This document shows, piece after piece, positions 10,010 to 32,682 of a stretch of DNA of 37,190 nucleotides. Source of the DNA: a virus; IMG/VR virus record IMGVR_UViG_3300043449_002193, positions 1 through 37,190 of that record; one strand, 5' to 3'. Each line of letters begins with the position of its first letter. Within the stretch, counting starts at the first letter, position 1. Made by a program: the position numbers and the translations under genes. Below the pieces are notes generated by a model that was not told the DNA's origin, did no database searches, and saw only the letters and a list, made by a program, of their open reading frames with translations.

Positions 10010-10022
10010 AAAAGCTCCTCAA

Positions 10023-10058
10023 GAAAAAAGGGGTGGCAGGAATATCCTGCCACCCCTT
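10023..10058 (-). terminator. Strong terminator after tail-tube paralogue 3
   Basis: On the minus strand a 12-bp GC-rich stem (10030-10041 with 10045-10056, loop of 3) is followed by six T's (10029-10024). It lies inside the tail operon, before the fourth tube paralogue, so it probably acts as a partial attenuator. Confidence 0.85.
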
Positions 10059-10093
10059 AATTTAGTATCGACCAAACCTAAATGCATTATTTA

Positions 10094-10687
10094 TTATACA
10101 GGTTCTGGATTGTTTTCATTAGTACCACAACCAGTACAGCACGGTGCAATAGTAAATCCGGGGCACTCATTAGTGTACTTAACATCAGAATATCTTAAGG
10201 TAAGTTCAATTGTGCATTCTTCAGAGCTTGAGTAATCGAGGTCACCAAAGTTAATGGCTGTAGGCCACACGTCTTTCATTTCCCAAGTTTCCATCAAGTT
10301 TCCGCAACCATCCCATAATTTCAAAATTGCAGTACAAGTGTAATCCGCACGTACCGCACCCATTTCTAGATTGATTGGGTCGGTAAAGTTGTAGACCGAA
10401 GCCAACCAATTGAATAAAGGTGCAACATCTGCTGTAGCTACGTCAATATATGTTACAGTGAGCGACTCCCAAGATGCTTTGCCCGGAATCCAAGTCTTAG
10501 CATTTAAGAAGTTAACTTCTGTTTCTTCGACAGAAAGGTTGGGCCTTCCCGCAGTTTTAACATAATGTTTGGGGACGGATTGAGAACCACAGATGTCAAA
10601 CAACTCCAAGGTGTAACGAAACTTTCTCTTGAAGACAAGGTTTTTAAATCCAAGTTGTCCAATCCCCATTGGGATCTTTTCAGCCAT
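10094..10687 (-). CDS. Tail tube-like protein, paralogue 3
   Basis: The 197-residue protein has the gp19-type pattern: FKRKFRYTLELF, GRPNLSVEETEVNFLNAKTW, IPGKASWESLTVTYIDVA, WPTAINFGDLDYSS and ELTLRYSDVKY. The C-terminus carries a CCTGCG cluster. It should belong to the tail tube. AGGAG precedes the ATG. It is very close to paralogue 2, implying tandem duplication, and ends with tandem TAA TAA. Confidence 0.85.
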   Translation of the reverse strand: MAEKIPMGIGQLGFKNLVFKRKFRYTLELFDICGSQSVPKHYVKTAGRPNLSVEETEVNFLNAKTWIPGKASWESLTVTYIDVATADVAPLFNWLASVYNFTDPINLEMGAVRADYTCTAILKLWDGCGNLMETWEMKDVWPTAINFGDLDYSSSEECTIELTLRYSDVKYTNECPGFTIAPCCTGCGTNENNPEPV

Positions 10688-10708
10688 TTCTAACTCCTAT
10701 CTGTCAAA

Positions 10709-11311
10709 TTAGATGTATGTCTTGTTTGCATACTTCACAGTAGTTCCACAACCACCGCAGCAAGGCTCTGGTTGGTAATCTGGGCAGTAGCTTCTGTACT
10801 TAACATCAGAATAACGAAGGGTTAGTTCGATGGTAGCAATGTCTGATGAACTGTAATCCAAATCGCCAAAGTTAATTGCGGTTGGGAATACTCTTTGAAG
10901 TTGCCACATTTCAATCAATGTGCCGCAACCATCGTACATGCTTAATAAGCCAGTTGCATCCCAGTCTCTTTTCTCGCCTTGGCGAAGATTGACTGGATCG
11001 GTGAAGTCATAAACTGTTGCAAGCCAGTTCCATAGTGAACGCATCTCGGTGTGTGCTACGTCGAGATATGTTACAGTAATTGTTTCCCAAGATGCTTTAC
11101 CCGGAATATAGGTTTTAGCATTGAGGTGATTAATTTCAGTTTCTTCGATTGAGAGGTTTGGGCGTGAAGCAACGCTAACGAAGTGCTCTGGCACTACGTT
11201 CTTTTCGTTATCACAGAAACCAAGAATTTCGAATGTCCAACGAAACTTTCGCTTGAACACCATATCTGGTTGCCCAATAACTCCAATCCCCATTGGTTTT
11301 TTGTCAGCCAT
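10709..11311 (-). CDS. Tail tube-like protein, paralogue 2
   Basis: The 200-residue protein matches paralogue 3 throughout: FKRKFRWTFEIL, SRPNLSIEETEINHLNAKTY, IPGKASWETITVTYLDVA, FPTAINFGDLDYSSSD, and a CCGGCG end. AGGAG lies before the ATG. The spacing to paralogue 3 is only 21 bases. Two nearly equal copies argue that both are used, perhaps in one mixed tube or at different tube levels. Confidence 0.85.
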   Translation of the reverse strand: MADKKPMGIGVIGQPDMVFKRKFRWTFEILGFCDNEKNVVPEHFVSVASRPNLSIEETEINHLNAKTYIPGKASWETITVTYLDVAHTEMRSLWNWLATVYDFTDPVNLRQGEKRDWDATGLLSMYDGCGTLIEMWQLQRVFPTAINFGDLDYSSSDIATIELTLRYSDVKYRSYCPDYQPEPCCGGCGTTVKYANKTYI

Positions 11312-11334
11312 TTTGTTCTCCTAAATTTGGTTTG

Positions 11335-11883
11335 TTAGCAACCTATACATACGCCTACAGCTTGTGGTCCACACCAGTTTCTATAGTTAACTTCTGAATA
11401 TCTTAATGTAACGTCGATGGTAAGCTCTGCTGAATCACTGTAATCAAGGTCGCCAAAATTTACTGATTGAGGCCAAACTGATCCAAGTAACCAACTTTCT
11501 AAAGGCTTTCCACAACCATCATAAACTTGAAGCAATGCTGTAGCATTCCAACCAATCTTTTCTGTCTGTGGTAAATCAATCAAAGGATTTTGTGTGTTGA
11601 AGTTGTATACAGAAGCAATCCAACTATACAAAGCACCTACATCCTGAGCGGCAACATCAATGTATGTAACACTTAATGGTTGCCATTTGCCTTTGCCGGG
11701 AATCCATGTCGTTGCATTCAGGAAGTTAATTTCCGATTCATCAATATCAAGCTGTGGTCTTGCGGCCACTTTTACATAAGACGCAGGAACGGGACCAACA
11801 GGGGTCTGAAGCTCCAATGTCCAGCGAAACTTTCTCTTAATAATGATGTTAGGAGCACCAAGCCTCCCAATTCCCATTGCCAT
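11335..11883 (-). CDS. Tail tube-like protein, paralogue 1
   Basis: The 182-residue protein lies directly after the sheath gene, the usual place for the main tube protein in T4-like phages. It shares IKRKFRWTLELQ, ARPQLDIDESEINFLNATTW, IPGKGKWQPLSVTYIDVA and WPQSVNFGDLDYSDS with paralogues 2 and 3, and ends CIGC. Its gene order makes it the best candidate for the main tube subunit, but expression level cannot be read from sequence. Two starts, Met1 and Met3, are possible; GAGG precedes them. Confidence 0.85.
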   Translation of the reverse strand: MAMGIGRLGAPNIIIKRKFRWTLELQTPVGPVPASYVKVAARPQLDIDESEINFLNATTWIPGKGKWQPLSVTYIDVAAQDVGALYSWIASVYNFNTQNPLIDLPQTEKIGWNATALLQVYDGCGKPLESWLLGSVWPQSVNFGDLDYSDSAELTIDVTLRYSEVNYRNWCGPQAVGVCIGC

Positions 11884-11957: not shown

Positions 11958-14312
11958 TTAGAACGTATCGGCGTTCTCACCGAAGCTTCCAGTTCTATGG
12001 ATGCTGAACTCGATAAAGATGAACTCAGCAGCACGAATTGGTTGAACACCGATTCGAGCACGCATTTCATTTCTATCAATTACGTCTGGCGTATTGAGTT
12101 CGGTATCGCACTTCACACGGAAGTCATTAACACCACGACCGACTTGAATCTCGGACAGAATTGAAGTTGCGATTCTTACAAACTTCTGTCTGAGAATGTC
12201 GTCATGAGGATCGAATAGCAACTGGCGGCTAGCCGCACGGATTCTCTTTTCGATAACGAACATCAAACGACGGACGTTAACACGATCAAGAGCGGTTGGA
12301 CGACGTTGCAGAGTCTTTTGACCCCAGATAACGAATCCATCGAAATCAACAAACTGAACGATTGGGTTGATGGCATTTCTGTAACCATACATCAAGTCAC
12401 GCTCTTCGAGCGTTGGACGACTAAACACGTCGGTGATGTTTGGTACGTTACCACGGTTAACACCAGCAGGAGCAAACCAAGGTGCTGACAATTGATCTGA
12501 ACGAGCAATCGTCGCCATGACAGAACCTGAAGGAGGAGCCCAAATATCAACTCTATTGAAGTTGTCACGAATCTTGACCCAAGGCCAGTACAGAGCACCG
12601 AAATCACTGTCAAAACGAGTGGTGTTCAGTGGGTGTGATCCATTCTGCCAGTGAACAATTTCCTTCACTGTGAGACCGAATGGTGGGTCGATGATTGCCA
12701 AGCAATCCATACGGACGTTTTGGCACAAATCCAACAGTGCGGTTACAACGGCGGTGCTGCTGTGACCCGGAACAGCGATCAAGTCAAGATCGATTTGCTC
12801 AGGCTCAGATAGAGCGTACATACCAGAGAAACCAACTCTATTTCCGATAATAAGTTCATCTTGTGTATCTGGATCTGAAGGAATACCGTCAGAACCGCCT
12901 TCAAGACGGTAAGTTCCATCAAGAGGAGGTGCAGAGTTAGCAGTATTGTCAGAAACACGAATCCAGTCTGATACGAGAGACAAGAATGTCTCAACATAAA
13001 ATCTGGAGTTTTCATCTTTGGTTAGACCGCCCCATGATTCAACTTCGACACCATTGTTGAAAACTTGTAGGATGAAGTTGCCTTCACGAATGTTATTTTC
13101 AATCACAACTTGTGTTGCATTACCATCAATACCAGCCGAATCGGCGTTGAGTGTAAAGGTAACAGCACCAGTTGAGTTTGTATCACCATTGATACGACCA
13201 TAAGTGTCTTCGGCTGGATCGCCGGAAGTACCAATTGGGCTATCGCCAAGCTTGGTCACACTTTCTAAGCCGAACAAGGCAGCGGCAGTGCTATCTGGCT
13301 TGATCAAAAGACGAGCGTCACGACCGTGGTGCAGGGTGCGGAAAGCGAGGTTATCACCATCTGCATATGCTTCCCAACCACCGGGTAGGTCGCCACCGTT
13401 TTCTACCAACTGGCTGTTAATTTCGGTAACAACTTGAGCAACGGTAGATTCAGTGCCTTCAAGATCAGCTAGATCAATTATTTGCACGACATTGTCAATA
13501 AGTACATTGTCAGTACCATCAACAACAATTTGAATATTAAGATCGCTTAAACCTGCAAAGTCATATTCGCCAGCAGATTGATAGGATGCTGGGTAACGGT
13601 CATTGCTTCCTGTAATCTCAGCTTGGGTCATGCCCGTGCCAAGGCCAGTCACGTTTCCGTCAATCACTGCACCACCGTACATTGCATCCTGAACGGAAAC
13701 GAATTCCAACTCACTATCAGGACCAAAGGCCCAAGTGGTTTGAACGCCGATATAATCATCGCCCGTATCAGTTACAAATTCGATGCCGTCGATCTGACCG
13801 TCCAATTGCAAATTGAGTTCTTCAGCAAGTTGGGCTGCGGTGTAGGTTCCAGCCAAAACAACCAAGGTTTTGGACATCAACACACCATTAAGTCTCCAAC
13901 GGAAGAACGAATCGTTTGCAAACGTATACGGCCCTTGTTCTTGCGACATCACGACGATACGACCACCAGCAGATGGAACGTCAACAGAGGCTGTCTCTGC
14001 TTTCTCGTCGCTAACATTATCTTCATCAGCAACACGAACGACATAAAGTTCGTTTGCCACTAACAGGTATTGCTCGGCAGCATAAACCAGATAAGGATCT
14101 CCGCTCTCAGGGTGCGGATACCCGAACACAGTATTCAACTGACGCTGGGTTGAAATCAAAGTTGGGACGTTAATCGGTCCCTTACTTGCGAATCCAACTA
14201 AGCCAGCACGGTGAAAGGATTGTTCGGGAGCTATGAAGCTCAAATCCTTCTCGGTGATTCTGACGCTTGGCGAAATCGTGTTAGATGGCGGAAATCCCCT
14301 TAGAATAGCCAT
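11958..14312 (-). CDS. Contractile tail sheath protein (gp18-like)
   Basis: At 784 residues this is the size of a large phage sheath protein (T4 gp18 is 659). The N-terminus has the sheath signature (SPSVRITEKDLSF, then RAGLVGFASKGPINVPTLI). The C-terminal domain carries the conserved NAINPIVQFVDFDGFVIWGQ block and ends PIRAAEFIFIEFSIHRTG, typical of sheath inter-subunit contacts. The central part (about 100-480) is a variable surface insertion. The sheath surrounds the tube and contracts on infection. GGGAG precedes the ATG. It follows the small 74-residue gene by 3 bases. Confidence 0.95.
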   Translation of the reverse strand: MAILRGFPPSNTISPSVRITEKDLSFIAPEQSFHRAGLVGFASKGPINVPTLISTQRQLNTVFGYPHPESGDPYLVYAAEQYLLVANELYVVRVADEDNVSDEKAETASVDVPSAGGRIVVMSQEQGPYTFANDSFFRWRLNGVLMSKTLVVLAGTYTAAQLAEELNLQLDGQIDGIEFVTDTGDDYIGVQTTWAFGPDSELEFVSVQDAMYGGAVIDGNVTGLGTGMTQAEITGSNDRYPASYQSAGEYDFAGLSDLNIQIVVDGTDNVLIDNVVQIIDLADLEGTESTVAQVVTEINSQLVENGGDLPGGWEAYADGDNLAFRTLHHGRDARLLIKPDSTAAALFGLESVTKLGDSPIGTSGDPAEDTYGRINGDTNSTGAVTFTLNADSAGIDGNATQVVIENNIREGNFILQVFNNGVEVESWGGLTKDENSRFYVETFLSLVSDWIRVSDNTANSAPPLDGTYRLEGGSDGIPSDPDTQDELIIGNRVGFSGMYALSEPEQIDLDLIAVPGHSSTAVVTALLDLCQNVRMDCLAIIDPPFGLTVKEIVHWQNGSHPLNTTRFDSDFGALYWPWVKIRDNFNRVDIWAPPSGSVMATIARSDQLSAPWFAPAGVNRGNVPNITDVFSRPTLEERDLMYGYRNAINPIVQFVDFDGFVIWGQKTLQRRPTALDRVNVRRLMFVIEKRIRAASRQLLFDPHDDILRQKFVRIATSILSEIQVGRGVNDFRVKCDTELNTPDVIDRNEMRARIGVQPIRAAEFIFIEFSIHRTGSFGENADTF

Positions 14313-14315
14313 GTC

Positions 14316-14540
14316 TTAATCTCCCTTACGAATTTCATTGTTTGGTACATATTTAGTCGAGATCAGGCCCATCTTCTCAACACGTTCTATGTATTCAGTT
14401 ACCAACTCATCCTCGATTAGCCTGACATTGTTTCCCTTGCCAACGCCGGGAACAATCAAGGTTGTGAAAGCACGGGGAGCCTTCCTCGATCTCACCACTA
14501 GCTGCACTGGGCTTTTTTGCTTGTTCTTAATCTCAATCAT
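14316..14540 (-). CDS. Small conserved protein preceding the sheath gene
   Basis: The 74-residue basic protein (IEIKNKQKSPVQLVVRSRK near the start; IEDELVTEYIERVEKMGLI near the end) looks like a compact beta domain plus helix. Short proteins of this kind are found just upstream of sheath genes in related large phages, with no function I know. It starts in an ATGA overlap with the gp15-like gene, with GGAAG upstream, and lies 3 bases before the sheath, so all three are coupled. Confidence 0.75.
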   Translation of the reverse strand: MIEIKNKQKSPVQLVVRSRKAPRAFTTLIVPGVGKGNNVRLIEDELVTEYIERVEKMGLISTKYVPNNEIRKGD

Positions 14541-15553
14541 TCTTCCAATTCCTTTACTGCTTGCTCTAACCGAGTCAGTACTTCGGTAATATCTTCCTCG
14601 TTAGGTGAGTCGGTGACTTCGATCCGAGTTTTAAGCACTGCTTTTCGTCTAACAATTGGCTGAGACACAAAGGACTCTGCCGTCAAACTAAATTGATACT
14701 TAAATACTCGAACAGCTTTGTCTCCGGGCTCGTAATCGACGTTATTAGCTATACTTGTTAGCTTAACTCCGATCTCCCACGAGATTCCCTTTACCCGTAT
14801 GTATGCTATCGGAGAGAATTTTGTTAGTATTTGAGTGAGAATCTGATTCATGTCCTCTTCATACATAGTCCAAGCATATAAGGTGTAGCCAATATCTACT
14901 GGAATTCCCCTAGTAACGCCAAAAACTGTGTCTCTTTCGAATCTTTCGCTTGTTGTAAATCCCGGCTTCCAATCATTCCTTGGCTCTCTTAAGTAATCAA
15001 TTGCTTTATGATAGATGTACCTATCTTGGTTAAAATTGAATTCTGAAGAGTGAATTGCCAATATTGGCAACCTTATACGATCAACAACAAGACTTTCGTC
15101 TTTTCTCATATTCTCTTGAAGTATGTATGCCACTGCTCTTTCTTGCGTTCCCCAGATAATAGGAATATTGTGTGCCTTGCCAGCCTCATCTAATACGACT
15201 ATATCCTTAAACAATTCTTTCACCGCTTCATCAGTTCCACGAATAGATTTGGCGTATCGATATACGACATTTCTATTAGGCGGAGACATCCCTTGTTCGT
15301 TGATAATGTGACCCGTTTGTTGTGGGTCGCATAATGCAGCAGCACCATTTCCGAGTTTGCTTTGCGTAGCATCCTCTAACCAAGACATGTCTTGGTTGCC
15401 AACATCATTTTGACTTTCGTAAAATGGTTTTTTGTTAATGGTGCCAGAACTCGAAATAGTTTTCCCATCCCGACAATAGTCTGGTGCTGGGTCAATATTG
15501 AGATCGTTTATAAATCCCGGTTCATTGCAAGGGTTAAGAGTTGGTTCGCTCAT
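14537..15553 (-). CDS. T4 gp15-like tail terminator / sheath-stabilising protein
   Basis: The 338-residue protein contains the pattern of T4 tail-completion proteins: VTRGIPVDIGYTLYAWTMYE, EDMNQILTQILTKFSPIAYI and YEPGDKAVRVFKYQFSLTAE (about residues 212-300). The N-terminal 110 residues are low-complexity, and the last 35 are charged and helical. gp15 caps the tube and sheath where the tail meets the neck. AGGAA precedes the start. Its place upstream of the sheath supports the call. It is longer than T4 gp15 (272). Confidence 0.8.
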   Translation of the reverse strand: MSEPTLNPCNEPGFINDLNIDPAPDYCRDGKTISSSGTINKKPFYESQNDVGNQDMSWLEDATQSKLGNGAAALCDPQQTGHIINEQGMSPPNRNVVYRYAKSIRGTDEAVKELFKDIVVLDEAGKAHNIPIIWGTQERAVAYILQENMRKDESLVVDRIRLPILAIHSSEFNFNQDRYIYHKAIDYLREPRNDWKPGFTTSERFERDTVFGVTRGIPVDIGYTLYAWTMYEEDMNQILTQILTKFSPIAYIRVKGISWEIGVKLTSIANNVDYEPGDKAVRVFKYQFSLTAESFVSQPIVRRKAVLKTRIEVTDSPNEEDITEVLTRLEQAVKELEE

Positions 15554-17305: not shown

Positions 17306-18547
17306 ATGCTCAACCATTCAGTTTCCGAATCAGGGCTTCCTGTTTTCCATATTCAAATGCCTGATGCAGCGATCTGCAAAGTTATGATCGTTGCAAACTG
17401 CGGTTCTTCTCAAGAAGAAAATGATTCTTGGGGCGTGGCCCACTTTCTTGAGCATTTGTGCTTCCAAGGCACTCCGACCAAAAACAAACATCAAGTGTCT
17501 CGGGAGCAAGCTTTAGTTGGCTCTTATAATGCCTACACCAACTATTTCAATACTGCTTACCACTTCGATTCACTCAATGAAGATTTCGAGCGGGGATTGA
17601 CGCTTCTTAAGGAGGCAGTATTTGACTCAAATTTCCCAGAACAAGAATTTGAAAAGGAAAAGAATGTCATTGTTGAAGAGTGGAGAATGTATGATAACTA
17701 CCCCACAGAACATTTTTGGGATTTCATTGCAGAGAAATGTTTCGGAGACACAGAAGGACATCCTATTATTGGAACGGAAGAATCTATCCGAAGCATGAAC
17801 CCTGAAAAGCTTCATCGCTTTAGAAACAAATGGTATGGACGACAAAACATGTTTGTTGTAGTGGTTGGCAACCTTGATTTTGAAAGAGTCATGAAGGCGG
17901 TCAACGAAATTCTTCCAGCAGCCCAATCCGTTGAGAAAGTTTCCCTGTGTCTCAATGACTTATTGACAAGTAGTGACAGGCACTCATTAGAAACTGACCG
18001 ATTTGAACAAGCTGCATTCGGATTGGTGCAAAAATGGGTATCTGCACAACAAAACATGGAGAGAAATTATATTCCCAGCTTTTTCGTCTATGCCCTAAAC
18101 AAGTACATGTATGAATATATTCGTGATGACCTTGGTTTGTGCTATGGAGTCTCTGTAAGTGGGTTTGGCCATTACGAAAACAATTATTCAGTCATTTCTA
18201 TGTTGACCAATAATGGTTATCTTGAAAAAGCTGAAACGGAATTGATTAATTTATTCAATCGGATCAAGTCAGAAGGATTTCCACTTGAGCTTTTTGAAAT
18301 TTGTAAGAAGCAATATCTTTACAATAAGATAAAGGGGCTACAAAGTGTTGGCGGAGTAGCAAGCACCATAGTCAGCGGTGTCTCGGCTTCAAGCGATCCA
18401 AATTGGTTTGTCAACGAAGGGCACAAGGCTATGGATATTGATGCCATCAAGAAGTGTGCAGCAAGTCTCAAGCCAAGTAATTTACAAGATTTTGCTCAAA
18501 GTCATCTTAGTGATGGGCTCAAATTCACAATGGTATCTACAAAGTAG
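17306..18547 (+). CDS. M16-family zinc metallopeptidase (insulinase/processing-peptidase type)
   Basis: The 413-residue protein has the inverted zinc motif HxxEH at residues 46-50 (VAHFLEHLCFQGT) and the distal glutamate region at about 121-126 (VIVEEW), spaced as in M16 peptidases. A second-half M16 C-domain is present, with a YIRDDLGLCYGVSVSG-like block near residues 272-287. Its length fits the single-chain M16B class. These enzymes cut peptides enclosed in a chamber. It has its own promoter, a palindrome and a strong terminator, so it is an independent unit. All catalytic residues are present, so activity is likely; the substrate is unknown. It is unusual in a phage. Confidence 0.9.
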   Translation: MLNHSVSESGLPVFHIQMPDAAICKVMIVANCGSSQEENDSWGVAHFLEHLCFQGTPTKNKHQVSREQALVGSYNAYTNYFNTAYHFDSLNEDFERGLTLLKEAVFDSNFPEQEFEKEKNVIVEEWRMYDNYPTEHFWDFIAEKCFGDTEGHPIIGTEESIRSMNPEKLHRFRNKWYGRQNMFVVVVGNLDFERVMKAVNEILPAAQSVEKVSLCLNDLLTSSDRHSLETDRFEQAAFGLVQKWVSAQQNMERNYIPSFFVYALNKYMYEYIRDDLGLCYGVSVSGFGHYENNYSVISMLTNNGYLEKAETELINLFNRIKSEGFPLELFEICKKQYLYNKIKGLQSVGGVASTIVSGVSASSDPNWFVNEGHKAMDIDAIKKCAASLKPSNLQDFAQSHLSDGLKFTMVSTK

Positions 18548-24721: not shown

Positions 24722-25186
24722 ATGGAAACATTTATTGGTTGGATGAAAAATCAATCTTTAACAGAATCCGAAACTCGCTACAGCGTGGAAGTAAATTTTC
24801 GCACACGCACCGACGAGGTTTTAACCCATGCTGCCAAAATTACTTTAGGTTATGCTTCTGCCGCCCTTAAAAAACATGATTTCCATGTAAAGCAAGTTTT
24901 TGAAGAAGATCCATTAAGAATTCTTGTCTCATCACGAAATTGGGATGATGGCGAATGGGTGTGTGTAGTGTCTTGGAATCCAAAGCACAAATGCTATGTG
25001 GTTTCTAAAGGCTTCTATAATAAAGATCGCAAAACAGTCTCAGTACAAGACAGCAAACATTGCGATGCTGAAAACGCTTCAGAAATTGTTGCACAAGTTC
25101 GTAATATTATGCATAATCTCAAAGATAAACCTGATCGTCACGTCGAGAAACTAAAGAAAGTGCCGATGAAAAGAGGCCCGAAGTAA
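24722..25186 (+). CDS. Conserved phage protein of unknown function
   Basis: The 154-residue protein contains YSVEVNFRTRTDEVLTHAAK, ALKKHDFHVKQVFEEDPLRI and LVSSRNWDDGEWVCVVSW: a compact alpha/beta domain that I associate with hypothetical proteins of large phages. The tail is basic. It starts 10 bases after the neck gene stop, with AGGA upstream, and ends in a one-base overlap with the Nudix gene, so three genes form one unit. Function is unknown. Confidence 0.7.
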   Translation: METFIGWMKNQSLTESETRYSVEVNFRTRTDEVLTHAAKITLGYASAALKKHDFHVKQVFEEDPLRILVSSRNWDDGEWVCVVSWNPKHKCYVVSKGFYNKDRKTVSVQDSKHCDAENASEIVAQVRNIMHNLKDKPDRHVEKLKKVPMKRGPK

Positions 25187-25644
25187 TGGGGAAGACTTGT
25201 CTTAAAAAATCTGCCGGAATAGTCTTTACTGATGGAAAGTCTATTCTTCTTTTATTGCGGGCAGAGGGGAAAAATGCTGATAGCTGGGGTTTACCCGGTG
25301 GTAAATGTGAAGAAGGCGAAACCGAGATTGAGAACGCCACAAGAGAAACAAGGGAAGAAACTGGGCTTCAAGATATTCCGGGCCAACAATTTGATTCTAT
25401 TTCTCACAGTGAAGGCAATAAAGCCTACACTGCTTTCTTTTATCAAGTAGAAAAGCCTTTTGAAGTAAAGTTGAATCACGAACACAAAGATTCAGCTTGG
25501 GTAAAGTTTGAGAACCTGAAGTCGCTTAAACTTCACCCAAAACTTAAAGCGAACATCTCTGACTATCTAAGAAAAATTCGTAAGAAGATGGCACACTTTT
25601 CAGAATGGTCGGTGCTTAAAGATCTTGAGGCTTATTTTGATTAA
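25186..25644 (+). CDS. Nudix hydrolase
   Basis: The 152-residue protein carries a complete Nudix box, G39-x5-E45-x7-R53-E54-x-x-E57-E58-x-G60-L61, in the usual place after LPGG. Nudix enzymes split nucleoside diphosphates linked to another group. Possible substrates are oxidised dNTPs, ADP-ribose, NADH or capped RNA; sequence alone does not decide. It converges on the NAD-salvage operon, with a 29-base tail overlap, so a link to NAD or ADP-ribose metabolism is tempting but unproven. Its start overlaps the preceding stop by one base. Confidence 0.9.
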   Translation: MGKTCLKKSAGIVFTDGKSILLLLRAEGKNADSWGLPGGKCEEGETEIENATRETREETGLQDIPGQQFDSISHSEGNKAYTAFFYQVEKPFEVKLNHEHKDSAWVKFENLKSLKLHPKLKANISDYLRKIRKKMAHFSEWSVLKDLEAYFD

Positions 25645-25900
25645 TGAGATCATCAACACTTTCTGCTTCTTCGATCCAATTATCTAAGGATTCACTTAAA
25701 AGCTTTGCTGCTTCTAAATTCATCGTAAACCGCAGAGTGTTTATTCTTTCGACCGGCACAATAGTTTGGTCTTTAGGCTCATGACAAATTTCTGAAAGAG
25801 TCAAAACTGCTTCTATTTCAGGAACCAATACTGTGCCTCCATCGGTTTTTCTACCCAAGAAAAGTCTAATGTTTCTGGCTGTTCCAATTAAAGATTGCAT
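25616..25900 (-). CDS. Small protein at the end of the NAD-salvage operon
   Basis: The ATG at 25898-25900 follows GGGAG by 6 nt and gives 94 residues; an earlier frame start lacks a ribosome site. The protein is acidic, with a strand-rich first half (NIRLFLGRKTDGGTVLVPEI) and a helical end (EAAKLLSESLDNWIEEAE). No family is recognised. It begins 13 bases inside the end of the NadD-like gene, so it is co-translated with it. Confidence 0.6.
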   Translation of the reverse strand: MQSLIGTARNIRLFLGRKTDGGTVLVPEIEAVLTLSEICHEPKDQTIVPVERINTLRFTMNLEAAKLLSESLDNWIEEAESVDDLINQNKPQDL

Positions 25901-26484
25901 GATTTGCTCCCATATAAACAGTTTTGATTGATATAAGTCCAAACATTTGGACTTACCATGTTGCAAGCTTCTTCATTTGCTTCTGTGATTGCAGTTCTGA
26001 CTTTAGTTGAACTTAGATTGTAGTCAACTTTTATCAATTTGTGTGGATCTACATTGTACCAAGTTGCAGTTGACTCTTCTCCTGTTCGTGTAATGACAAT
26101 AAAGGGATTGTATAACACAATCCATTGCCCACGATCCCATGATTCGAGAATGACATTTGCATTATCCATGCCAATCACAATGTGAAAATCAATGTCTTGA
26201 AACGAGGCTTTAAGACCCAACATAGTTTCATACATCGACCCCGAATGTTGTTTGTCAATTTCCCACGAACAAAGCTTTACAAAAGGCATTTTTTGGCAAG
26301 CCAATGCAAGCATGGCCCATCTATGATAAATGGGAGTGGGGTCTTTTCCAAATTTATGATTCCAACACGGCATGAGCCAAATATCAAATCCTGTTTCATC
26401 ATGAATCTTTTGACAGATGAATTCATGAGCCAAGGTTACAGGATCGAATGCTCCGCCGAACAAAGCCACTTGTTTTTTGTTCAT
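25888..26484 (-). CDS. nadD: NadD-like nicotinate-nucleotide adenylyltransferase
   Basis: The 198-residue protein has the nucleotidylyltransferase N-terminal motif GGAFDP (residues 10-15) followed by TLAH (17-20), and the C-terminal SSTKVR motif (158-163) that binds ATP phosphates. It should convert nicotinate mononucleotide plus ATP to deamido-NAD; specificity for the nicotinate over the nicotinamide form is inferred from its neighbours. The first His of HxGH is Thr, as in the wider T/HxGH superfamily, and the Gly is Ala, a point to test. It overlaps the NAD synthetase stop (ATGA), which fixes the start at 26484. Confidence 0.85.
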   Translation of the reverse strand: MNKKQVALFGGAFDPVTLAHEFICQKIHDETGFDIWLMPCWNHKFGKDPTPIYHRWAMLALACQKMPFVKLCSWEIDKQHSGSMYETMLGLKASFQDIDFHIVIGMDNANVILESWDRGQWIVLYNPFIVITRTGEESTATWYNVDPHKLIKVDYNLSSTKVRTAITEANEEACNMVSPNVWTYINQNCLYGSKSCNL

Positions 26485-28481
26485 TTTGGCAACCACACAC
26501 TAGGATCAGCATCAGATGGCATTCGCCAGTCTCCACGAGGCGACAGGCTTACAGAGCCAACTTTTGGTCCATCGGGCACACAATTTCGTTTGAATTGCTG
26601 GCTGAAAAATCTGCGTAAAAAAGTGTTCAAGGTAGTTTCAATTACGTATTTTGAATACCCTTTTGAAAACTGTGCATGTTCCGCAAGATAAAAAAGCTTT
26701 TCAGGAGAAAAACCAAACTTGATAAAGTTTGCCAAGAAGAAATCGTGCAGTTCATAAGGTCCAATGCTGTCTTCTGTTGATTGTTCAATTTCGCCTGATT
26801 TACTTGGTGGCAAAAGCTCAGGAGAGATTGTGGTTTCAAGAATACTGATGAGTGCTTTTTGAAGATTGGAATCAGCAATTGTTTCTGTATCGGTTGCAAA
26901 TTGCACAACTGAACGAACCAAGGTTTTCGGCACTGAACAATTGACATTGTACATGCTCATGTGGTCGCCATTGTAAGTACACCAACCAAGAGCAAGTTCA
27001 GAGAGATCGCCTGTTCCTAAAACAAATCCACGACTCATGAGAATTTTTGTTCGCTCTCTGGCCTGAACATTTTCAAAGACCAAATCTTGTCTTTGCGATA
27101 TCGGAACCGACTGCAAAGCTTTTTCGAATTCATCAAGAGGCAAATTGAAATCGACGATTCCAAAAGGTTTGTGATTTAACGCCTTGAACGTAGCGAGACA
27201 AATAGGTCGAATGTCAATGGTTTCTTGTGAAATGCCAAGCTCTGTCATTAGCGAAAGAGCATTATTTTTGGTTTTGGAAGTGGTTCCAAAACCGGGCAGG
27301 GTGATGCCGTGAATTTTCTTTATATCAACCCCAGCAGATTTGAAAGCCTTTACTGCCACCAACAAAGCTAGCGTAGAATCTAATCCACCGGAAACACCAA
27401 TATAGATGTCGCCGAAACTTGTGGCTTCCAGTCTTTTTAGAAGGCCAGCACATTGAATTCCAAAAACTTCTGCACAACGCCTTTTCCTCAAGGCTTGATC
27501 CTTTGGAACAAACGGTGAACTATCAATTTCTCGTTTAAGGTTTAGAGTGATATTTTGTGAAGAAGTGGTTACAAGATCGATAAAACGGAATTGTCGTTCA
27601 ATCAATCTATTTGAATCTCCAAAACTGGTAATTTTAAGACGTTCATTTTGAAGCCTTTCTACATCGATATCGACGCTTGTATGCCAGCCAGAATCGCAAA
27701 CAAAGCCGTTGTTTCCTACACGATCTGTTTCGGCAAGCACTTGACCATTTTCAGCAATCAAACAATGTCCTCCAAATACAAGATCGCTCGTAGACTCGGA
27801 TGGCCCGGCAGAGGCGTAAGCATACGCAGAAATACACCTAGCAGATTGATTTTTCACCAAATCCACTCGATATTCATTTTTGCCTACTGTTTCATTGGAT
27901 GCCGATAAATTGACAATCAGATTGGCCCCTCTGATTGAGGCGAAACTACTTGGAGGAATCGGCATCCATAAATCCTCACAGATTTCCGCAAAAACGGACA
28001 AGGGGCCAAAATTGAAAATTAAATCAATACCAAAAGGCACCATGTCGTCTTGAGCAAACAAAACTTCTTTTGGTTCATCTCCATTAGCTGCCCGAAACCA
28101 TCTGCTTTCGTAGAATTCCGAATAGTTTGGAATATTTGTCTTGGGGACAATCCCCTGAACCTTGCCGTTTTGAATTGCAAACGCACAATTGAAGAGTTCG
28201 TTCCCAACCACAAATGGAGCACCTACAAATACCAATTGGTCATTGCGTTTGGTGTGCTCGGCAATTTCCAAAATTGCATTTGTGGTGTGTTTATGCAGTA
28301 TTGATTGTCGAAATAGATCCCCGCAAGTGTAACCAGTAACACACAATTCTGGAAATACCACCACATCTGCATCTTTGTTTTGAGCAAGATGCAAAATGAT
28401 TTGTGAAGCATTATTTGCTGGATTTCCAACAAATACCTTGGGGGAGCAAACAGCTACTCGTGCAAATCCAAACAGGTTCAT
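26481..28481 (-). CDS. nadE: Glutamine-dependent NAD+ synthetase
   Basis: The 666-residue protein has the two-domain layout and length of bacterial glutamine-dependent NadE. The nitrilase-type glutaminase domain shows the full triad: Glu45 (FPELCVTGY), Lys114 (GIVPKTNIPNY) and Cys168 (AEICEDLW). The synthetase domain has the PP-loop SGGLDS at 364-369 and LGTGDLSELALGWCTYNGDH further on. It turns deamido-NAD into NAD+ using glutamine and ATP. The ATG at 28481 lies 7 nt after the upstream stop; an in-frame TTG six codons earlier is less likely. All catalytic residues are present, so it should be active. Confidence 0.95.
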   Translation of the reverse strand: MNLFGFARVAVCSPKVFVGNPANNASQIILHLAQNKDADVVVFPELCVTGYTCGDLFRQSILHKHTTNAILEIAEHTKRNDQLVFVGAPFVVGNELFNCAFAIQNGKVQGIVPKTNIPNYSEFYESRWFRAANGDEPKEVLFAQDDMVPFGIDLIFNFGPLSVFAEICEDLWMPIPPSSFASIRGANLIVNLSASNETVGKNEYRVDLVKNQSARCISAYAYASAGPSESTSDLVFGGHCLIAENGQVLAETDRVGNNGFVCDSGWHTSVDIDVERLQNERLKITSFGDSNRLIERQFRFIDLVTTSSQNITLNLKREIDSSPFVPKDQALRKRRCAEVFGIQCAGLLKRLEATSFGDIYIGVSGGLDSTLALLVAVKAFKSAGVDIKKIHGITLPGFGTTSKTKNNALSLMTELGISQETIDIRPICLATFKALNHKPFGIVDFNLPLDEFEKALQSVPISQRQDLVFENVQARERTKILMSRGFVLGTGDLSELALGWCTYNGDHMSMYNVNCSVPKTLVRSVVQFATDTETIADSNLQKALISILETTISPELLPPSKSGEIEQSTEDSIGPYELHDFFLANFIKFGFSPEKLFYLAEHAQFSKGYSKYVIETTLNTFLRRFFSQQFKRNCVPDGPKVGSVSLSPRGDWRMPSDADPSVWLPK

Positions 28482-28488
28482 GGTATTT

Positions 28489-29652
28489 TTAGGAATCAAG
28501 AGGAGTTTTGAAGAAAGTCCAACGAGCTACACGCAGAGCATCTTTATCACCAATTGCCTTGGTGGGAGAATCACTTATTTTGACAACGGGAACATTATTA
28601 CACTCAGCCAATTTAATGACCATATTAAGTGCAGGAGAGTTCTCGAAGTCGTTAGTGAAGTTTGTACCAATTCCGAAAGCTGTATTAATTTTGCCTGCAC
28701 AACATTTGGCAATCTCCACAGCCTTCTCTGGATTGAGCCCATCGCTGAAGACGATTGTTTTCGTGATAGGTGCAATATTCAATTTTTGGTAGGCGGCTAT
28801 GGTTTTTGCTGCAAATTCAAGAGGATTACCTGAATCATGCCTCACGCCGTCAAACAATCGTGCCAGTACGTCGTCGAAATCTTCAAAAAAGATATCAGAC
28901 TGAAAAGTGTCTGTGAGAGCAGTTCCCAATCGACCCTTGTAAACCCTTTGCCATATTTTCAAAGCTTCCCGATTGGCATGTCTCAAACTTTCCAAAGCTG
29001 ATATTCCCATGATCCATTCATGTGCCATTGTTCCCAATGGACGTATATTGTGCTTATGAGCCAAGTGAACATTGCTCGTGCCTTGAAAAGTTGAAAACGC
29101 TTTCAGGACTTCAACAGCTAAATCTTGAACGGCAAAGCTGCGACGACGACGAGTGCCGAAATCTGTGAAACTGAACCCATCAAGTGTTTTGCCTTTTTTA
29201 TGCAATTTTTGAGCTTGTGTGCCTAAATCAGTGTCCCAATTAGTATCACAATGCAGAAAAAACAATTCAGAAATCAAGGCCATCAAAGGAACCTCCCAAA
29301 GGATGGTGCGTTCCCATGTTCCTGCGATTTCAAGTTTAAGTTCACCTCTATGAACTTCCCATTGTACTTCATTGGGATCGAAACGATAATTTTTCAAGTA
29401 TTGAATGTAATCTTCTCCAAGCCACGGCAAGGTCTCCCGTAGCCAAGAACATTGATCTTCGGTCATGATAAGATATTGCATCTCATCAAGTTGTGTGGCA
29501 AATGCTTGTGCAAAATTGGAATTAAACTTCCCTTCTGGACGACGATTATTGAAGATATATCGCACAGGAACATTCTGTCGATAATTCAAGACCGCCTTTT
29601 GCATGGTGAGCTTGTAAAGATCGGTATCAAGAATGGATCGAATAATTGTCAT
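28489..29652 (-). CDS. pncB: Nicotinate phosphoribosyltransferase
   Basis: From the ATG at 29650-29652 the protein is 387 residues, similar to E. coli PncB. It carries its signature blocks: FGTRRRR (165-171), QGTSNVHLAHKH (190-201), LGTMAHEWIMG (206-216), DGVRHDSGNP (268-277) and FSDGLNPEKA, FGIGTNFTND further on. It joins nicotinate and phosphoribosyl pyrophosphate to give nicotinate mononucleotide, the first step of the Preiss-Handler route. The frame extends upstream into the tRNA but that part is not coding. It lies 36 nt beyond the tRNA in the same operon. Confidence 0.95.
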   Translation of the reverse strand: MTIIRSILDTDLYKLTMQKAVLNYRQNVPVRYIFNNRRPEGKFNSNFAQAFATQLDEMQYLIMTEDQCSWLRETLPWLGEDYIQYLKNYRFDPNEVQWEVHRGELKLEIAGTWERTILWEVPLMALISELFFLHCDTNWDTDLGTQAQKLHKKGKTLDGFSFTDFGTRRRRSFAVQDLAVEVLKAFSTFQGTSNVHLAHKHNIRPLGTMAHEWIMGISALESLRHANREALKIWQRVYKGRLGTALTDTFQSDIFFEDFDDVLARLFDGVRHDSGNPLEFAAKTIAAYQKLNIAPITKTIVFSDGLNPEKAVEIAKCCAGKINTAFGIGTNFTNDFENSPALNMVIKLAECNNVPVVKISDSPTKAIGDKDALRVARWTFFKTPLDS

Positions 29653-29688
29653 GTTGAAGTCTTTCAACTGTGAACGGAAGAGTGGAAA

Positions 29689-29761
29689 TGCATCCTGTGG
29701 GACTCGAACCCACAACTGGCAAATTTAGAGTTTGCCGCTCTACCAATTGAGCTAAGGATGC
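29689..29761 (-). tRNA. Amber-suppressor-type tRNA, anticodon CUA
   Basis: The minus strand folds as a full cloverleaf: acceptor GCATCCT/AGGATGC, D stem GCTC/GAGC with AATTGGTA loop, anticodon stem GCAAA/TTTGC, T stem GTGGG/CCCAC with TTCGAGT loop. The anticodon loop is CTCTAAA, so U33 is present and the anticodon is CUA, reading UAG. The variable loop is short (5 nt), which excludes Leu, Ser and bacterial Tyr types. The discriminator is A and no CCA is encoded. The loop differs from the usual tRNA-Trp loop CTCCAAA by one base, as in the known E. coli Su7 suppressor. It lies 5 nt after the VWA-like gene stop and is probably cut from the operon transcript. Confidence 0.9.
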
Positions 29762-29766
29762 AAAGG

Positions 29767-30423
29767 TTAGTTTTGTGAAGCTTGATCGTATTTTCTTTGC
29801 AAAGGAGTCAAATCTTCAGATGGTCCTCCAGAACCCAAAGCTTTGTTTTGAGCCCTGATCACATCAGCTATGAATTCAGGAATATTTGTTATCACACCCT
29901 TTTCTGATTCGTCAATAATCTCACAGAGCGAGAAACTGTTTGAAGCAAACCGTGAGAAGAACTGTTGGTCAGATGTGTCGCCAACGCCAATGAACAAAGA
30001 AACAAATGACTCCAATGCTTCTGAAGAAATTGCCCTAGCTATGGCTCTTTTCACATCATTGATTGAGCCTTCGCTGTAGGCGTCCTTAGAATCAGCAACG
30101 ACATAAAACATGGCATTGCAGTTGTAGCCGTCAGCATTCAGTAATTCTGCACACTCAATTAGTTGATAAATTGCCTCAGCACAACTGTCCTTAAGCAAAC
30201 CTTCAGATGTAATTTTCGACTTGAATTTTTGATTCAAAATGTGTGCAGGAACGAACTGATGATGCAGAGATCGAAAAGGTGTGGCCATGTAATTGTGATT
30301 GCAAACAACTGACTCTGATGCCAGACCTTCGATTGTTTGATACAAAGCCTCCAAGTCCACGTAAATCTTGCCACCTTCACTAGTTAATCCCGATACAAGC
30401 GTGAGTTCTTTCGAAGTAACCAT
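29767..30423 (-). CDS. VWA-like domain protein
   Basis: The 218-residue protein has alternating strands and helices consistent with a von Willebrand A-like fold: GKIYVDLEALYQTI, then NAMFYVVADSKDAYSEGS, VKRAIARAIS and FVSLFIGVGD, with helical C-terminus. The metal-site DxSxS motif is not evident at the first strand, though DSKDAYS is loosely similar. AAGGGG precedes the ATG. VWA-like proteins usually serve as assembly or partner-binding modules. Its place between the Thg1/membrane-protein genes and the tRNA suggests a role in the same system. The fold call is moderate. Confidence 0.6.
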   Translation of the reverse strand: MVTSKELTLVSGLTSEGGKIYVDLEALYQTIEGLASESVVCNHNYMATPFRSLHHQFVPAHILNQKFKSKITSEGLLKDSCAEAIYQLIECAELLNADGYNCNAMFYVVADSKDAYSEGSINDVKRAIARAISSEALESFVSLFIGVGDTSDQQFFSRFASNSFSLCEIIDESEKGVITNIPEFIADVIRAQNKALGSGGPSEDLTPLQRKYDQASQN

Positions 30424-30520: not shown

Positions 30521-30742
30521 TTAATCATCTTCGCTGTCATAATCATCGTCATCGCCGTAATTGAATGGATCACCACCGTACTTCCACCAATTGGCCGGAT
30601 CTCTCAAGTCTTTCTCTCTTTCTGCTTGGCCAGTTTTTTTAGCAAGAGATCCAAGCATTAAAGTGTTAAAGATAAACGTGAGAATGCTTCCGGCTATTAT
30701 TCCTAGCAAGAAAACAAGCAAATCATTGTTCTGACTTTCCAT
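30521..30742 (-). CDS. Small single-pass membrane protein
   Basis: The 73-residue product has one transmembrane helix (about residues 8-30, LLVFLLGIIAGSILTFIF) and a soluble tail. The tail turns from basic (KKTGQAEREKD) to very acidic at the end (GDDDDYDSEDD). It overlaps the end of the Thg1-like gene by 20 bases and has no strong ribosome site of its own, so it depends on translation of that gene. Function is unknown. The 97 bases after it towards the VWA gene's upstream side (30424-30520) show only a weak GCCA/TGGC hairpin. Confidence 0.65.
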   Translation of the reverse strand: MESQNNDLLVFLLGIIAGSILTFIFNTLMLGSLAKKTGQAEREKDLRDPANWWKYGGDPFNYGDDDDYDSEDD

Positions 30743-31562
30743 TTGTAATTGAATCCTTCAATTCTGGCACCGCTCCATGTAGTAAAACTTCCGTCTTATT
30801 AGCAATTTTTGTAAAGACAGGAAGAGCCTCTGCTCGGACAATCGTCCTACGAATGTCCAAATCTGGCTTTTGTCGTGCGTGGTGTTTTTCAGGAAGAGAT
30901 GCAAGTTCTTCCACCGTGTAGGCACGATATAATTGATGCCTTCTTACATAAGTACCACGCTTGAAAAATTCAGGATAATTATTCCAATTGATTCCTTTAG
31001 CAAAAAGCATTTCTTGAAGATGCGATACATTCTTTTTAAAACACTCCTTGTCACTGTAGACAGATCTTGCAGCCATTTGAACAGAGTTGCGAGTTGCATC
31101 TTGTTCTCGCCAAATAAAACAATTAACAGCTTCGATTTCGTTAGGGACTTGAAAGACTCGACAATCAAAGACTGGCAATTTGTCTGCTTTCTCAGGCAGA
31201 AAATCTGGAAGTCTTTTGTTGAAAAAAGCCGTGCCAGTTGCAGCTAAGACAGATGCCATCTTTTGGAGTTTTCCACCAAAGAAAATCTTGGTGTCCCATT
31301 CCTGTGCAAGCCACACCAGACTTATCTCATCTGACTGAGTATAGCCGCAACGAGCATCAGTTTCTTGAACTAAGAACTTGGTTGTTTCAACCATAAGTTC
31401 AGAAAGTCTGTCATCGTATGGTCTTTTCAATCCTCTAGTAAAGCTGTGAAAAGCTCTACCATCAAGACGAGCAATTACTGGTGCCATAGGCATGAAAGTT
31501 TGATCAGTGAAACGGCCTTCATACCATTTCATTCTGTCGCCAAGTTTAGTTTTGTCGCTCAT
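30723..31562 (-). CDS. thg1: Thg1-like 3'-5' RNA polymerase (tRNAHis guanylyltransferase family)
   Basis: The 279-residue protein shows the family's catalytic blocks: ARLDGRAFHSFTRGL with Asp34, and GYTQSDEISLVW with Asp78-Glu79. These are the carboxylates that hold the two metals of the reversed-polymerase active site. The size matches eukaryotic Thg1. Bacterial and phage Thg1-like proteins add nucleotides to the 5' end of truncated tRNAs using a template, so tRNA 5'-end repair is the likely role. The RNA ligase gene ends 1 base upstream, strongly suggesting joint action. All key residues are present. Confidence 0.9.
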   Translation of the reverse strand: MSDKTKLGDRMKWYEGRFTDQTFMPMAPVIARLDGRAFHSFTRGLKRPYDDRLSELMVETTKFLVQETDARCGYTQSDEISLVWLAQEWDTKIFFGGKLQKMASVLAATGTAFFNKRLPDFLPEKADKLPVFDCRVFQVPNEIEAVNCFIWREQDATRNSVQMAARSVYSDKECFKKNVSHLQEMLFAKGINWNNYPEFFKRGTYVRRHQLYRAYTVEELASLPEKHHARQKPDLDIRRTIVRAEALPVFTKIANKTEVLLHGAVPELKDSITNGKSEQ

Positions 31563-31563
31563 A

Positions 31564-32682
31564 TTAGTGATCCTCAGTTGGGTTGGGATTTCTTCGGTCG
31601 TGATAATCGGCGGAGATGTACTTTAAGACAACTCGTCCGCCAAGTAAGTTATCGTACCGCTCAGTTACTGGCTTAATTACAATGCCTTCCCGTCCCTTGA
31701 ATGGAGTGCGAATATTTTTCGCTTCACAAACTGTTGTGGGACCATCAACGAATTGATCAATGGTTTCCAATGAAAATGGACCACGGAAAAGAATCGGAAC
31801 CATAGGAATATCGAATCTTTCGAGATGTTCTTTCATCTCGTCATAATTCAAATATTGCCCATCAACAGAAATGTCGAACGCTCTGAAAGAAGCAGTTTTT
31901 TGTCCATAGTCCATATCTTGGACGCCTTGACCGAAGATTTCCCCGTACAAGATGACAGACTGCTTTGCTTTCTTTTTCATCCACAAATCGACCAACAGGT
32001 TGTTGATTGCACACTCATCGCCTTGTTTGAAAGGCAACCAGTATTTGCTGCGATTCCCTTTCGCATCAAATTCTTTTCGGCGTACTGAATGTGACCCGGC
32101 AACTTTTTCCCAATAATCATCACCAAATTCATTTTTGCCATTGAGAACAAATCCCAAACGACTGTTGGTTCCGTGGATTTTTTCGGTAATAACCACTTCT
32201 TCCCCGACTGAAAATACATTCGGGAAATTGCCAAAATTTTCAATGCTTGAATAAGCATAGAAAGTAGGAATTTCATGAGCCGCATCACCGTCAAGAGATT
32301 TAACGGGCGGTTCGTATTTGGTAATTTTGTAATGCTCTTTCACATCATGACCAACAGGCCATGAGGGATCATCCAAGTTTTGGATAGTTCCAAAAGATGG
32401 CGTTCCTCGGAAGCGAGCAGCTTTAATTCTGTAAAGAACCTCGCCAGCATCACACATGGATTGCGGCAGTTGAGGACAATACTTGGCAATTCCCCAACGG
32501 TTAGCCAAATCCTCGGTGATGACAGCATTGGGCGGAACGAAAACGACTTTGTCGCCCGGTTTGTAAGTGCCTTTGCCAGACACGCACCACCAATTTTTGA
32601 CACGAACTCGTTCGATGCGATCAGCACCTTCAATAGGAGCGGTTTCTTCCACCACACAAACTTCAACGATCAAGCTGGACAT
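31564..32682 (-). CDS. ATP-dependent RNA ligase, Rnl5-type
   Basis: The 372-residue protein has an N-terminal OB-fold module (about 1-120, with VRVKNWWCVSGKGTYKPGDK) and a nucleotidyltransferase domain. Motif I is K168-I-H-G-T-N, motif III ILYGEIFG (244-251), motif IV EGIVIKP (332-338) and motif V VVLKYIS (351-357). N-terminal OB plus C-terminal transferase is the arrangement of the Deinococcus Rnl5 ligase, which seals 3'-OH/5'-phosphate nicks in RNA. GGAGA precedes the ATG, which overlaps the upstream gene by 13 bases. With the Thg1-like gene next door, RNA or tRNA repair is the natural reading. Confidence 0.9.
   Translation of the reverse strand: MSSLIVEVCVVEETAPIEGADRIERVRVKNWWCVSGKGTYKPGDKVVFVPPNAVITEDLANRWGIAKYCPQLPQSMCDAGEVLYRIKAARFRGTPSFGTIQNLDDPSWPVGHDVKEHYKITKYEPPVKSLDGDAAHEIPTFYAYSSIENFGNFPNVFSVGEEVVITEKIHGTNSRLGFVLNGKNEFGDDYWEKVAGSHSVRRKEFDAKGNRSKYWLPFKQGDECAINNLLVDLWMKKKAKQSVILYGEIFGQGVQDMDYGQKTASFRAFDISVDGQYLNYDEMKEHLERFDIPMVPILFRGPFSLETIDQFVDGPTTVCEAKNIRTPFKGREGIVIKPVTERYDNLLGGRVVLKYISADYHDRRNPNPTEDH

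What the first reader, a model, noticed from the sequence alone, without database searches (positions are those of the whole stretch)
25888..29652. Complete phage Preiss-Handler NAD+ pathway: PncB, NadE, NadD in one operon
Seen: three adjacent genes with intact motifs for all steps from nicotinate to NAD+. Known: phages rebuild NAD+ to overcome NAD-depleting defences (NARP1 and NARP2), and KVP40-like phages carry NadV/NadR, but those routes use ADP-ribose or nicotinamide. Inference: a nicotinate-based NAD+ reconstitution route, useful after a host nicotinamidase or with free nicotinate, and possibly against defences that leave nicotinamide.
Basis: partly seen in the sequence, partly recalled or inferred. 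Interest (0 to 1): 0.8.

Follow-up and report, generated by a model that had tools for sequence, protein, structure and literature searches.

The report
Phage operon making NAD+ from nicotinate
A tailed phage carries, side by side, the three enzymes that build the vital cofactor NAD+ from vitamin B3 (nicotinate), and many other large phages carry the same set plus a nicotinamidase, so this looks like a third and so far untested way for phages to keep NAD+ up in an infected cell.

Summary
On the minus strand, pncB (28489-29652), a glutamine-dependent nadE (26481-28481) and nadD (25888-26484) form one tight operon with intact active-site motifs. PncB and NadE pass strict family cut-offs. NadD is a clear homologue that scores slightly under its cut-off. 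The flanks are myovirus genes, and a separate contig (L002) keeps the same order, so this is phage DNA.

Relatives put the module in context. PncB, NadE and NadD recur in dozens of large phage contigs. In 24 of 35 records (some near-copies) a nicotinamidase (PncA) lies beside them, completing nicotinamide to NAD+. Seven contigs of the window's own group interleave the genes with a vWA-PP2C-kinase triad (TerY-P-like). The window keeps only a vWA gene with a damaged metal site and shows no PncA. No record held a second NadV-type gene, and a 459-kb relative with an 89% identical sheath lacks PncB and NadE.

It is not the first: Bacillus phage G has all four genes annotated, and a 2026 paper lists pncB, nadD and nadE in a Xanthomonas phage. 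The route differs from NARP1 and NARP2. I found no experimental work on it. NAD+ synthesis is well supported; the counter-defence role is inference.

The parts
28489..29652 (-). pncB, nicotinate phosphoribosyltransferase (nicotinate + PRPP to NaMN)
   Evidence: TIGR01514 and NF003704 over cut-off; solved NAPRTs E=5e-87; GTMAHEW and FGTRRR motifs kept in alignment A4
26481..28481 (-). nadE, glutamine-dependent NAD+ synthetase (NaAD to NAD+)
   Evidence: NF002730 816 bits, cut-off 473; full-length to 3dla
25888..26484 (-). nadD, nicotinate mononucleotide adenylyltransferase (NaMN to NaAD); overlaps nadE by 4 bases
   Evidence: TIGR00482 97 bits, just under cut-off; solved NadDs E=5e-16; motifs in A5
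25616..25899 (-). small ORF overlapping the end of nadD, unknown function, probably last gene of the transcription unit
   Evidence: no family match; 43% identical homologue in the same place in L002
29688..29762 (-). tRNA gene with CUA (amber) anticodon directly upstream of pncB
   Evidence: ARAGORN, Rfam tRNA 72 bits; same place in L002
29767..30423 (-). vWA-domain protein with degenerate metal site; relic of a vWA-PP2C-kinase triad that flanks the NAD genes in relatives
   Evidence: profile match 8e-72; alignment A3; model matches vWA/I-domains, E=2e-5
30723..31562 (-). Thg1-like tRNA-His guanylyltransferase, neighbour (RNA repair context)
   Evidence: Pfam Thg1 3.7e-30, phrog_4717 1.9e-83
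31564..32682 (-). RNA ligase, neighbour (RNA repair context)
   Evidence: Pfam RNA_ligase 1.2e-23, phrog_968 5.5e-40
25186..25644 (+). MutT-like Nudix hydrolase, convergent with the operon; kept near it in L002, L003 and L006
   Evidence: Pfam NUDIX 4.4e-17; synteny

Best explanation
The three genes encode the deamidated (Preiss-Handler) route: PncB turns nicotinate and PRPP into nicotinate mononucleotide, NadD adenylates it to nicotinate adenine dinucleotide, and NadE amidates that with glutamine to NAD+. During infection they would keep or restore the NAD+ pool while the host's own metabolism is taken over. The main selective reason is probably NAD+-depleting defences: TIR and SIR2 NADases release nicotinamide, which a nicotinamidase (host PncA, or the phage PncA that most relatives carry) converts into the nicotinate used here. 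Shown by sequence: the enzyme set, its integrity, its operon layout, its phage context and its recurrence. Inferred: catalysis, timing and the counter-defence role. I put about 0.9 on the enzyme set making NAD+ from nicotinate and 0.55-0.6 on counter-defence as the main reason; the figure below is for the whole statement.
For: PncB and NadE pass equivalog cut-offs and NadD matches solved enzymes. Tight operon with 4-base overlap and 7-base gap. Low dN (0.19-0.29) against a dS of 1-2.3 where it could be computed, versus L002 at 63-74% amino-acid identity: purifying selection. The set travels as a set: 35 of 38 PncB-bearing records have an NAD synthase gene and 30 of 38 an adenylyltransferase-family gene; 24 of 35 have PncA, NadD and NadE within 10 kb of PncB on one strand. 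PncA-family genes pass the Pfam cut-off in 22 of 34 records, and the window's own group has a divergent form whose model best matches solved nicotinamidases, E=3e-13. One NAPRTase-family gene per record in 29 of 29, so no separate NadV route alongside, like the either/or choice described for bacteria (PMC9316036). Patchy among close kin: a 459-kb relative with 89% identical sheath has neither PncB nor NadE, as expected of an accessory, conflict-type module.
Against: No activity data. No nicotinamidase in the 37-kb window or in the 94-kb L002 record, so supply of nicotinate rests on the host or on the unseen rest of the genome. NadD scores under its equivalog cut-off. Patchy occurrence fits a metabolic auxiliary role as well as counter-defence. 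No known anti-defence gene was identified beside the operon (only PncB and the vWA protein of the window were scanned against PADLOC). Host unknown.
Confidence: 0.6

Rival explanations
1. General metabolic support: the phage boosts or replaces host NAD+ synthesis to meet the demand of a large genome and a long infection, or because the host is limited in NAD+ synthesis, with no special link to defence.
For: Occurs mostly in large contigs; uses ordinary housekeeping enzymes; published authors offered a metabolic reading for the Rheinheimera phage pncB (PMC6715854).
Against: Patchy even between close relatives; inclusion of PncA and, in seven contigs, of a TerY-P-like triad of a kind tied to conflict systems.
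Confidence: 0.3
2. NAD+ is made to feed the phage's own NAD+-using enzymes, such as NAD+-dependent DNA ligase or RNA 2'-phosphotransferase (KptA) in RNA repair.
For: KptA lies inside the NAD cluster of Bacillus phage G and about 1.5 kb upstream of PncB in G012; RNA ligase and Thg1 neighbour the operon here.
Against: NAD+-dependent ligase in only 12 of 29 records and in none of G001, G002, G004, G005, G009, G038, G043 or G057 of the window's wider group; KptA in only 5 of 29. Many of these records are fragments.
Confidence: 0.08
3. The segment is host DNA or an assembly chimera.
For: PncB, NadE and NadD are bacterial housekeeping families.
Against: Same order with phage genes on both sides in an independent contig; best bacterial PncB only 47% identical versus 74% for the phage relative, and it groups with phage sequences in the tree, support 93, not starred.
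Confidence: 0.01

Closest known systems
Bacterial Preiss-Handler / deamidating nicotinamide salvage (PncA-PncB-NadD-NadE)
   Same: Same enzyme families and order of reactions; NadE is of the glutamine-dependent type
   Different: Carried by a phage as one operon; PncA missing from the part of this genome that is held
Bacillus phage G gp275, gp277, gp281, gp283
   Same: Nicotinamidase-like, PncB, NadD and NadE genes within 6 kb, annotated in the public record
   Different: Different subfamilies: the long TIGR01513-type PncB and ammonia-type NadE; KptA within the cluster
Sinorhizobium phage Phosso and Agrobacterium phage Atu_ph07
   Same: PncB, NadE and, in Phosso, an adenylyltransferase and an isochorismatase-family hydrolase nearby
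   Different: PncB only 30-34% identical; in Atu_ph07 NadE lies about 89 kb away
NARP2 / KVP40-type NadV with NadM or NadR
   Same: Phage-encoded NAD+ synthesis from a pyridine base and PRPP; surveyed in PMC9503650 and PMC7824862
   Different: NadV uses nicotinamide and makes NMN, two steps to NAD+; here nicotinate, deamidated intermediates and an amidation step. The surveys name only NadV, NadM and NadR
NARP1 (Adps and Namat)
   Same: Phage NAD+ restoration
   Different: NARP1 rebuilds NAD+ from ADP-ribose and nicotinamide; the enzymes here start from nicotinate and PRPP
TerY-P triad (vWA, PP2C, Ser/Thr kinase)
   Same: Seven relatives interleave such a triad with the NAD genes
   Different: In the window only a vWA gene with a damaged metal site remains

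Membership tests
Preiss-Handler NAD+ pathway | Nicotinate (not nicotinamide) phosphoribosyltransferase | tested here: met
   TIGR01514 equivalog over cut-off
Preiss-Handler NAD+ pathway | NaMN adenylyltransferase NadD | tested here: inconclusive
   All strong matches are NadD models, TIGR00482 97 bits against cut-off 112; motifs kept; NaMN versus NMN preference not measurable here
Preiss-Handler NAD+ pathway | NAD+ synthetase amidating NaAD | tested here: met
   NF002730 816 bits, cut-off 473; catalytic motifs aligned
Preiss-Handler NAD+ pathway | Catalytic activity of the three proteins together | not testable with these tools
   Needs biochemistry
Deamidating nicotinamide salvage (with PncA) | Nicotinamidase | tested here: not met
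   None in the window or in the 94-kb G001 record; present in most relatives; the rest of the genome is not held
NARP2 | NadV nicotinamide phosphoribosyltransferase plus NadM/NadR | tested here: not met
   PncB is the nicotinate type; only one NAPRTase-family gene per record in 29 of 29 relatives with a match; NadD is not fused to Nudix or kinase
NARP1 | Adps and Namat genes | not tested
   No dedicated models searched; family scans of the operon and its neighbours named other enzymes
TerY-P triad | vWA with metal site, PP2C phosphatase and kinase together | tested here: not met
   Window: vWA with degenerate site, no PP2C or kinase. Seven relatives have all three
Counter-defence system | Restores phage growth against an NADase defence | not testable with these tools
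   Needs plaque assays

The most novel reading that the evidence does not exclude
Large phages carry a third NAD+ reconstitution pathway, the four-enzyme deamidating route PncA-PncB-NadD-NadE. It turns the nicotinamide left by NADase defences back into NAD+ through deamidated intermediates. In one lineage it is wired to a vWA-PP2C-kinase switch that would tune it during infection; the window's phage has shed that switch and the nicotinamidase.
Probability: 0.4. Interest if true: 0.78.

Novelty: new variant of a known kind. Interest (0 to 1): 0.56.

Why it matters
The known phage answers to NAD+ depletion, NARP1 and NARP2, reuse nicotinamide directly. A widespread route through nicotinate would mean that phages use both halves of bacterial NAD+ salvage, and that screens looking only for Adps/Namat or NadV miss it. 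It costs more ATP, so its persistence calls for a reason. One candidate is that deamidated intermediates are chemically more stable (PMC9316036); whether defence NADases spare them was not examined. The triad association, if functional, would be a regulated NAD+ module in viruses.

Tried and rejected
Host DNA or chimera: rejected by synteny with phage genes in L002 and by the tree. Recoded stop codon because of the CUA tRNA: six window genes end in TAG, but where it could be compared relatives stop at or near the same place (in one case with TAA), so TAG appears to work as a stop here. Acinetobacter phage MD-2021a as supporting phage: rejected, its contig is bacterial chromosome (serB, dtd, psd). 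Checking the Xanthomonas phage X1 claim through its relative BUDD: record not held; none of the PncB searches listed a Xanthomonas phage, so its 'pncB' may be a NadV read by an automatic annotator. My first NadD profile picked up NadE because of NadD-NadE fusions, so Pfam coordinates were used instead. PADLOC gave no match for window PncB or for the vWA and PP2C proteins; kinase matches were weak and generic. Promoter matches were modestly above and terminator matches not above the shuffled mean, so neither was used.

Full report
OBSERVATION. The window is an IMG/VR virus record of 37,190 bases with no end repeats, likely a fragment. On the minus strand three genes follow each other: pncB 28489-29652, nadE 26481-28481, nadD 25888-26484. 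The pncB-nadE gap is 7 bases, and the nadE stop and nadD start share ATGA. A further small ORF (start 25899) overlaps the end of nadD. Pfam names all three enzymes. NCBIfam puts PncB (422 bits, cut-off 270) and NadE (816, cut-off 473) well over their equivalog cut-offs; NadD reaches 97 bits against 112. Alignments to solved structures keep the main motifs: the FGTRRR and GTMAHEW blocks in PncB; the Glu, Lys and Cys motifs of the glutaminase and the SGGLDST loop in NadE; the GGxFDPxTxxH, SSTxxR and Trp positions in NadD. The Thr in place of the first His of the NadD motif is also found in phage G and other phage NadDs. Assignment of catalytic roles to these residues is from general knowledge of the families.

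PHAGE ORIGIN. The contig also encodes tail sheath, sheath stabiliser, four tail-tube paralogues, baseplate hub, head-tail adaptor and a sigma factor. A second contig, L002 (94 kb, sheath 97% identical, PncB 74%), has the same order RNA ligase, Thg1, CUA tRNA, PncB, NadE, NadD, small ORF, Nudix, adaptor. Against L002, dN is 0.19-0.29; dS is 2.3 for PncB and 1.0 for NadD and could not be computed for NadE. This indicates purifying selection, with dS near saturation. The best bacterial PncB is 47% identical. In a quick tree the window groups with phage sequences and one Melainabacteria contig (support 93, not starred); the second phage group is separate. PncB therefore probably entered large phages more than once.

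RECURRENCE. One scan of IMG/VR with window PncB gave 38 loci on contigs of 4 to 548 kb, most over 40 kb. 35 of these records have an NAD synthase gene and 30 an adenylyltransferase-family gene. Searching for isochorismatase-family hydrolases found 22 of 34 over cut-off. In the second phage group PncA, PncB, NadD and NadE often sit within 3-4 kb on one strand, for example L037 8922-12573, with NadE over its domain cut-off and PncB over its equivalog cut-off; NadD and NadE are fused in L013 and L016. Counting records, 24 of 35 have PncA, NadD and NadE within 10 kb of PncB on its strand; several records are near-copies, so independent cases are fewer.

THE WINDOW'S OWN GROUP. Relatives L003, L004, L006, L010, L039, L090 and L097 have a 266-333 aa protein upstream that Pfam recognises weakly or not at all. 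It keeps Asp, Lys and Cys positions of nicotinamidases. Its model (pLDDT 86) matches Acinetobacter nicotinamidase (E=3e-13) and yeast Pnc1 best. A profile of it finds 14 of 30 records, but not the window or L002's record. The next gene in these relatives is a vWA protein with a DxSGS site, and PP2C and kinase genes are interleaved: PncA, vWA, PncB, NadE, PP2C, NadD, kinase in L004, L006 and L090; seven contigs have vWA, PP2C and kinase. This composition matches the TerY-P triad as described in PMC11090510. The window's 218-aa protein at 29767-30423 is the vWA (profile E=8e-72; fold match to vWA/I-domains at E=2e-5 from a model of moderate confidence), but the DxSGS site is lost. So the window appears to be a reduced version of a larger module; reduction rather than an older state is inference.

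HOW IT WORKS. Nicotinate + PRPP to NaMN (PncB), NaMN + ATP to NaAD (NadD), NaAD + ATP + glutamine to NAD+ (NadE). NADases free nicotinamide; PncA of host or phage would supply nicotinate. I give about 0.9 to the enzyme set making NAD+ from nicotinate and about 0.55-0.6 to counter-defence as the main reason. For: the PncA link, patchy presence (a 459-kb relative with 89% identical sheath lacks PncB and NadE; another, G046, has PncB but no NadE), and the triad. Against: no assay, unknown host, and a metabolic role explains much of the same data. Feeding phage NAD+ users is weak: NAD+-dependent ligase in 12 of 29 and KptA in 5 of 29 records.

WHAT IS KNOWN. Two surveys of phage NAD+ systems name only NadV, NadM and NadR (PMC7824862, PMC9503650). 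NARP1 and NARP2 are described as replenishing NAD+ (PMC11984713); the primary 2024 Nature paper was not found in the library. pncB alone was noted in a Rheinheimera phage (PMC6715854) and in Atu_ph07 (PMC6102473). Bacillus phage G annotates a nicotinamidase-family gene, PncB, NadD and NadE within 6 kb. Xanthomonas phage X1 is reported with pncB, nadM, nadD, nadE and NAMPT by automatic annotation, with a sentence on NAD+ depletion (PMC13384950). I found no paper that describes the deamidated route in phages as a system or tests it; subscription papers and preprints were mostly not searchable.

VERDICT. Observation confirmed; enzyme interpretation right; defence role plausible and unproven; a new variant of phage NAD+ reconstitution rather than a new kind. 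The most interesting lead is outside the given coordinates: the recurrent PncA and the vWA-PP2C-kinase triad in relatives.

Noticed in passing
29688-29762 (-); L002 9893-9967: A tRNA with CUA (amber) anticodon sits just upstream of pncB in both contigs, yet TAG still appears to serve as a stop in six window genes. Its use is unexplained.
   Followed up: partly
L004/L005, nadD region 14053-14646: The NadD homologue of these relatives reads through two in-frame TAG codons, which suggests TAG recoding in that phage.
   Followed up: no
9422-11883: Four tandem tail-tube paralogues next to a 784-aa sheath, unusual in number.
   Followed up: no
17306-18547: M16 (insulinase-type) metallopeptidase gene among structural genes; 68% identical in L101.
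   Followed up: no
30723-32682: Thg1-like guanylyltransferase and RNA ligase adjacent, a possible tRNA repair pair.
   Followed up: no
L004, L006, L010, L039, L090, L094, L097: vWA, PP2C and kinase genes (TerY-P-like) interleaved with NAD genes in phages.
   Followed up: partly
L013 15661-16902, L016 1859-3235: NadD-NadE fusion proteins in phages.
   Followed up: no
CAKLQH020000008 (L040): Public 'Acinetobacter phage MD-2021a' contig carries serB, dtd, psd and phoR and looks like bacterial chromosome.
   Followed up: partly
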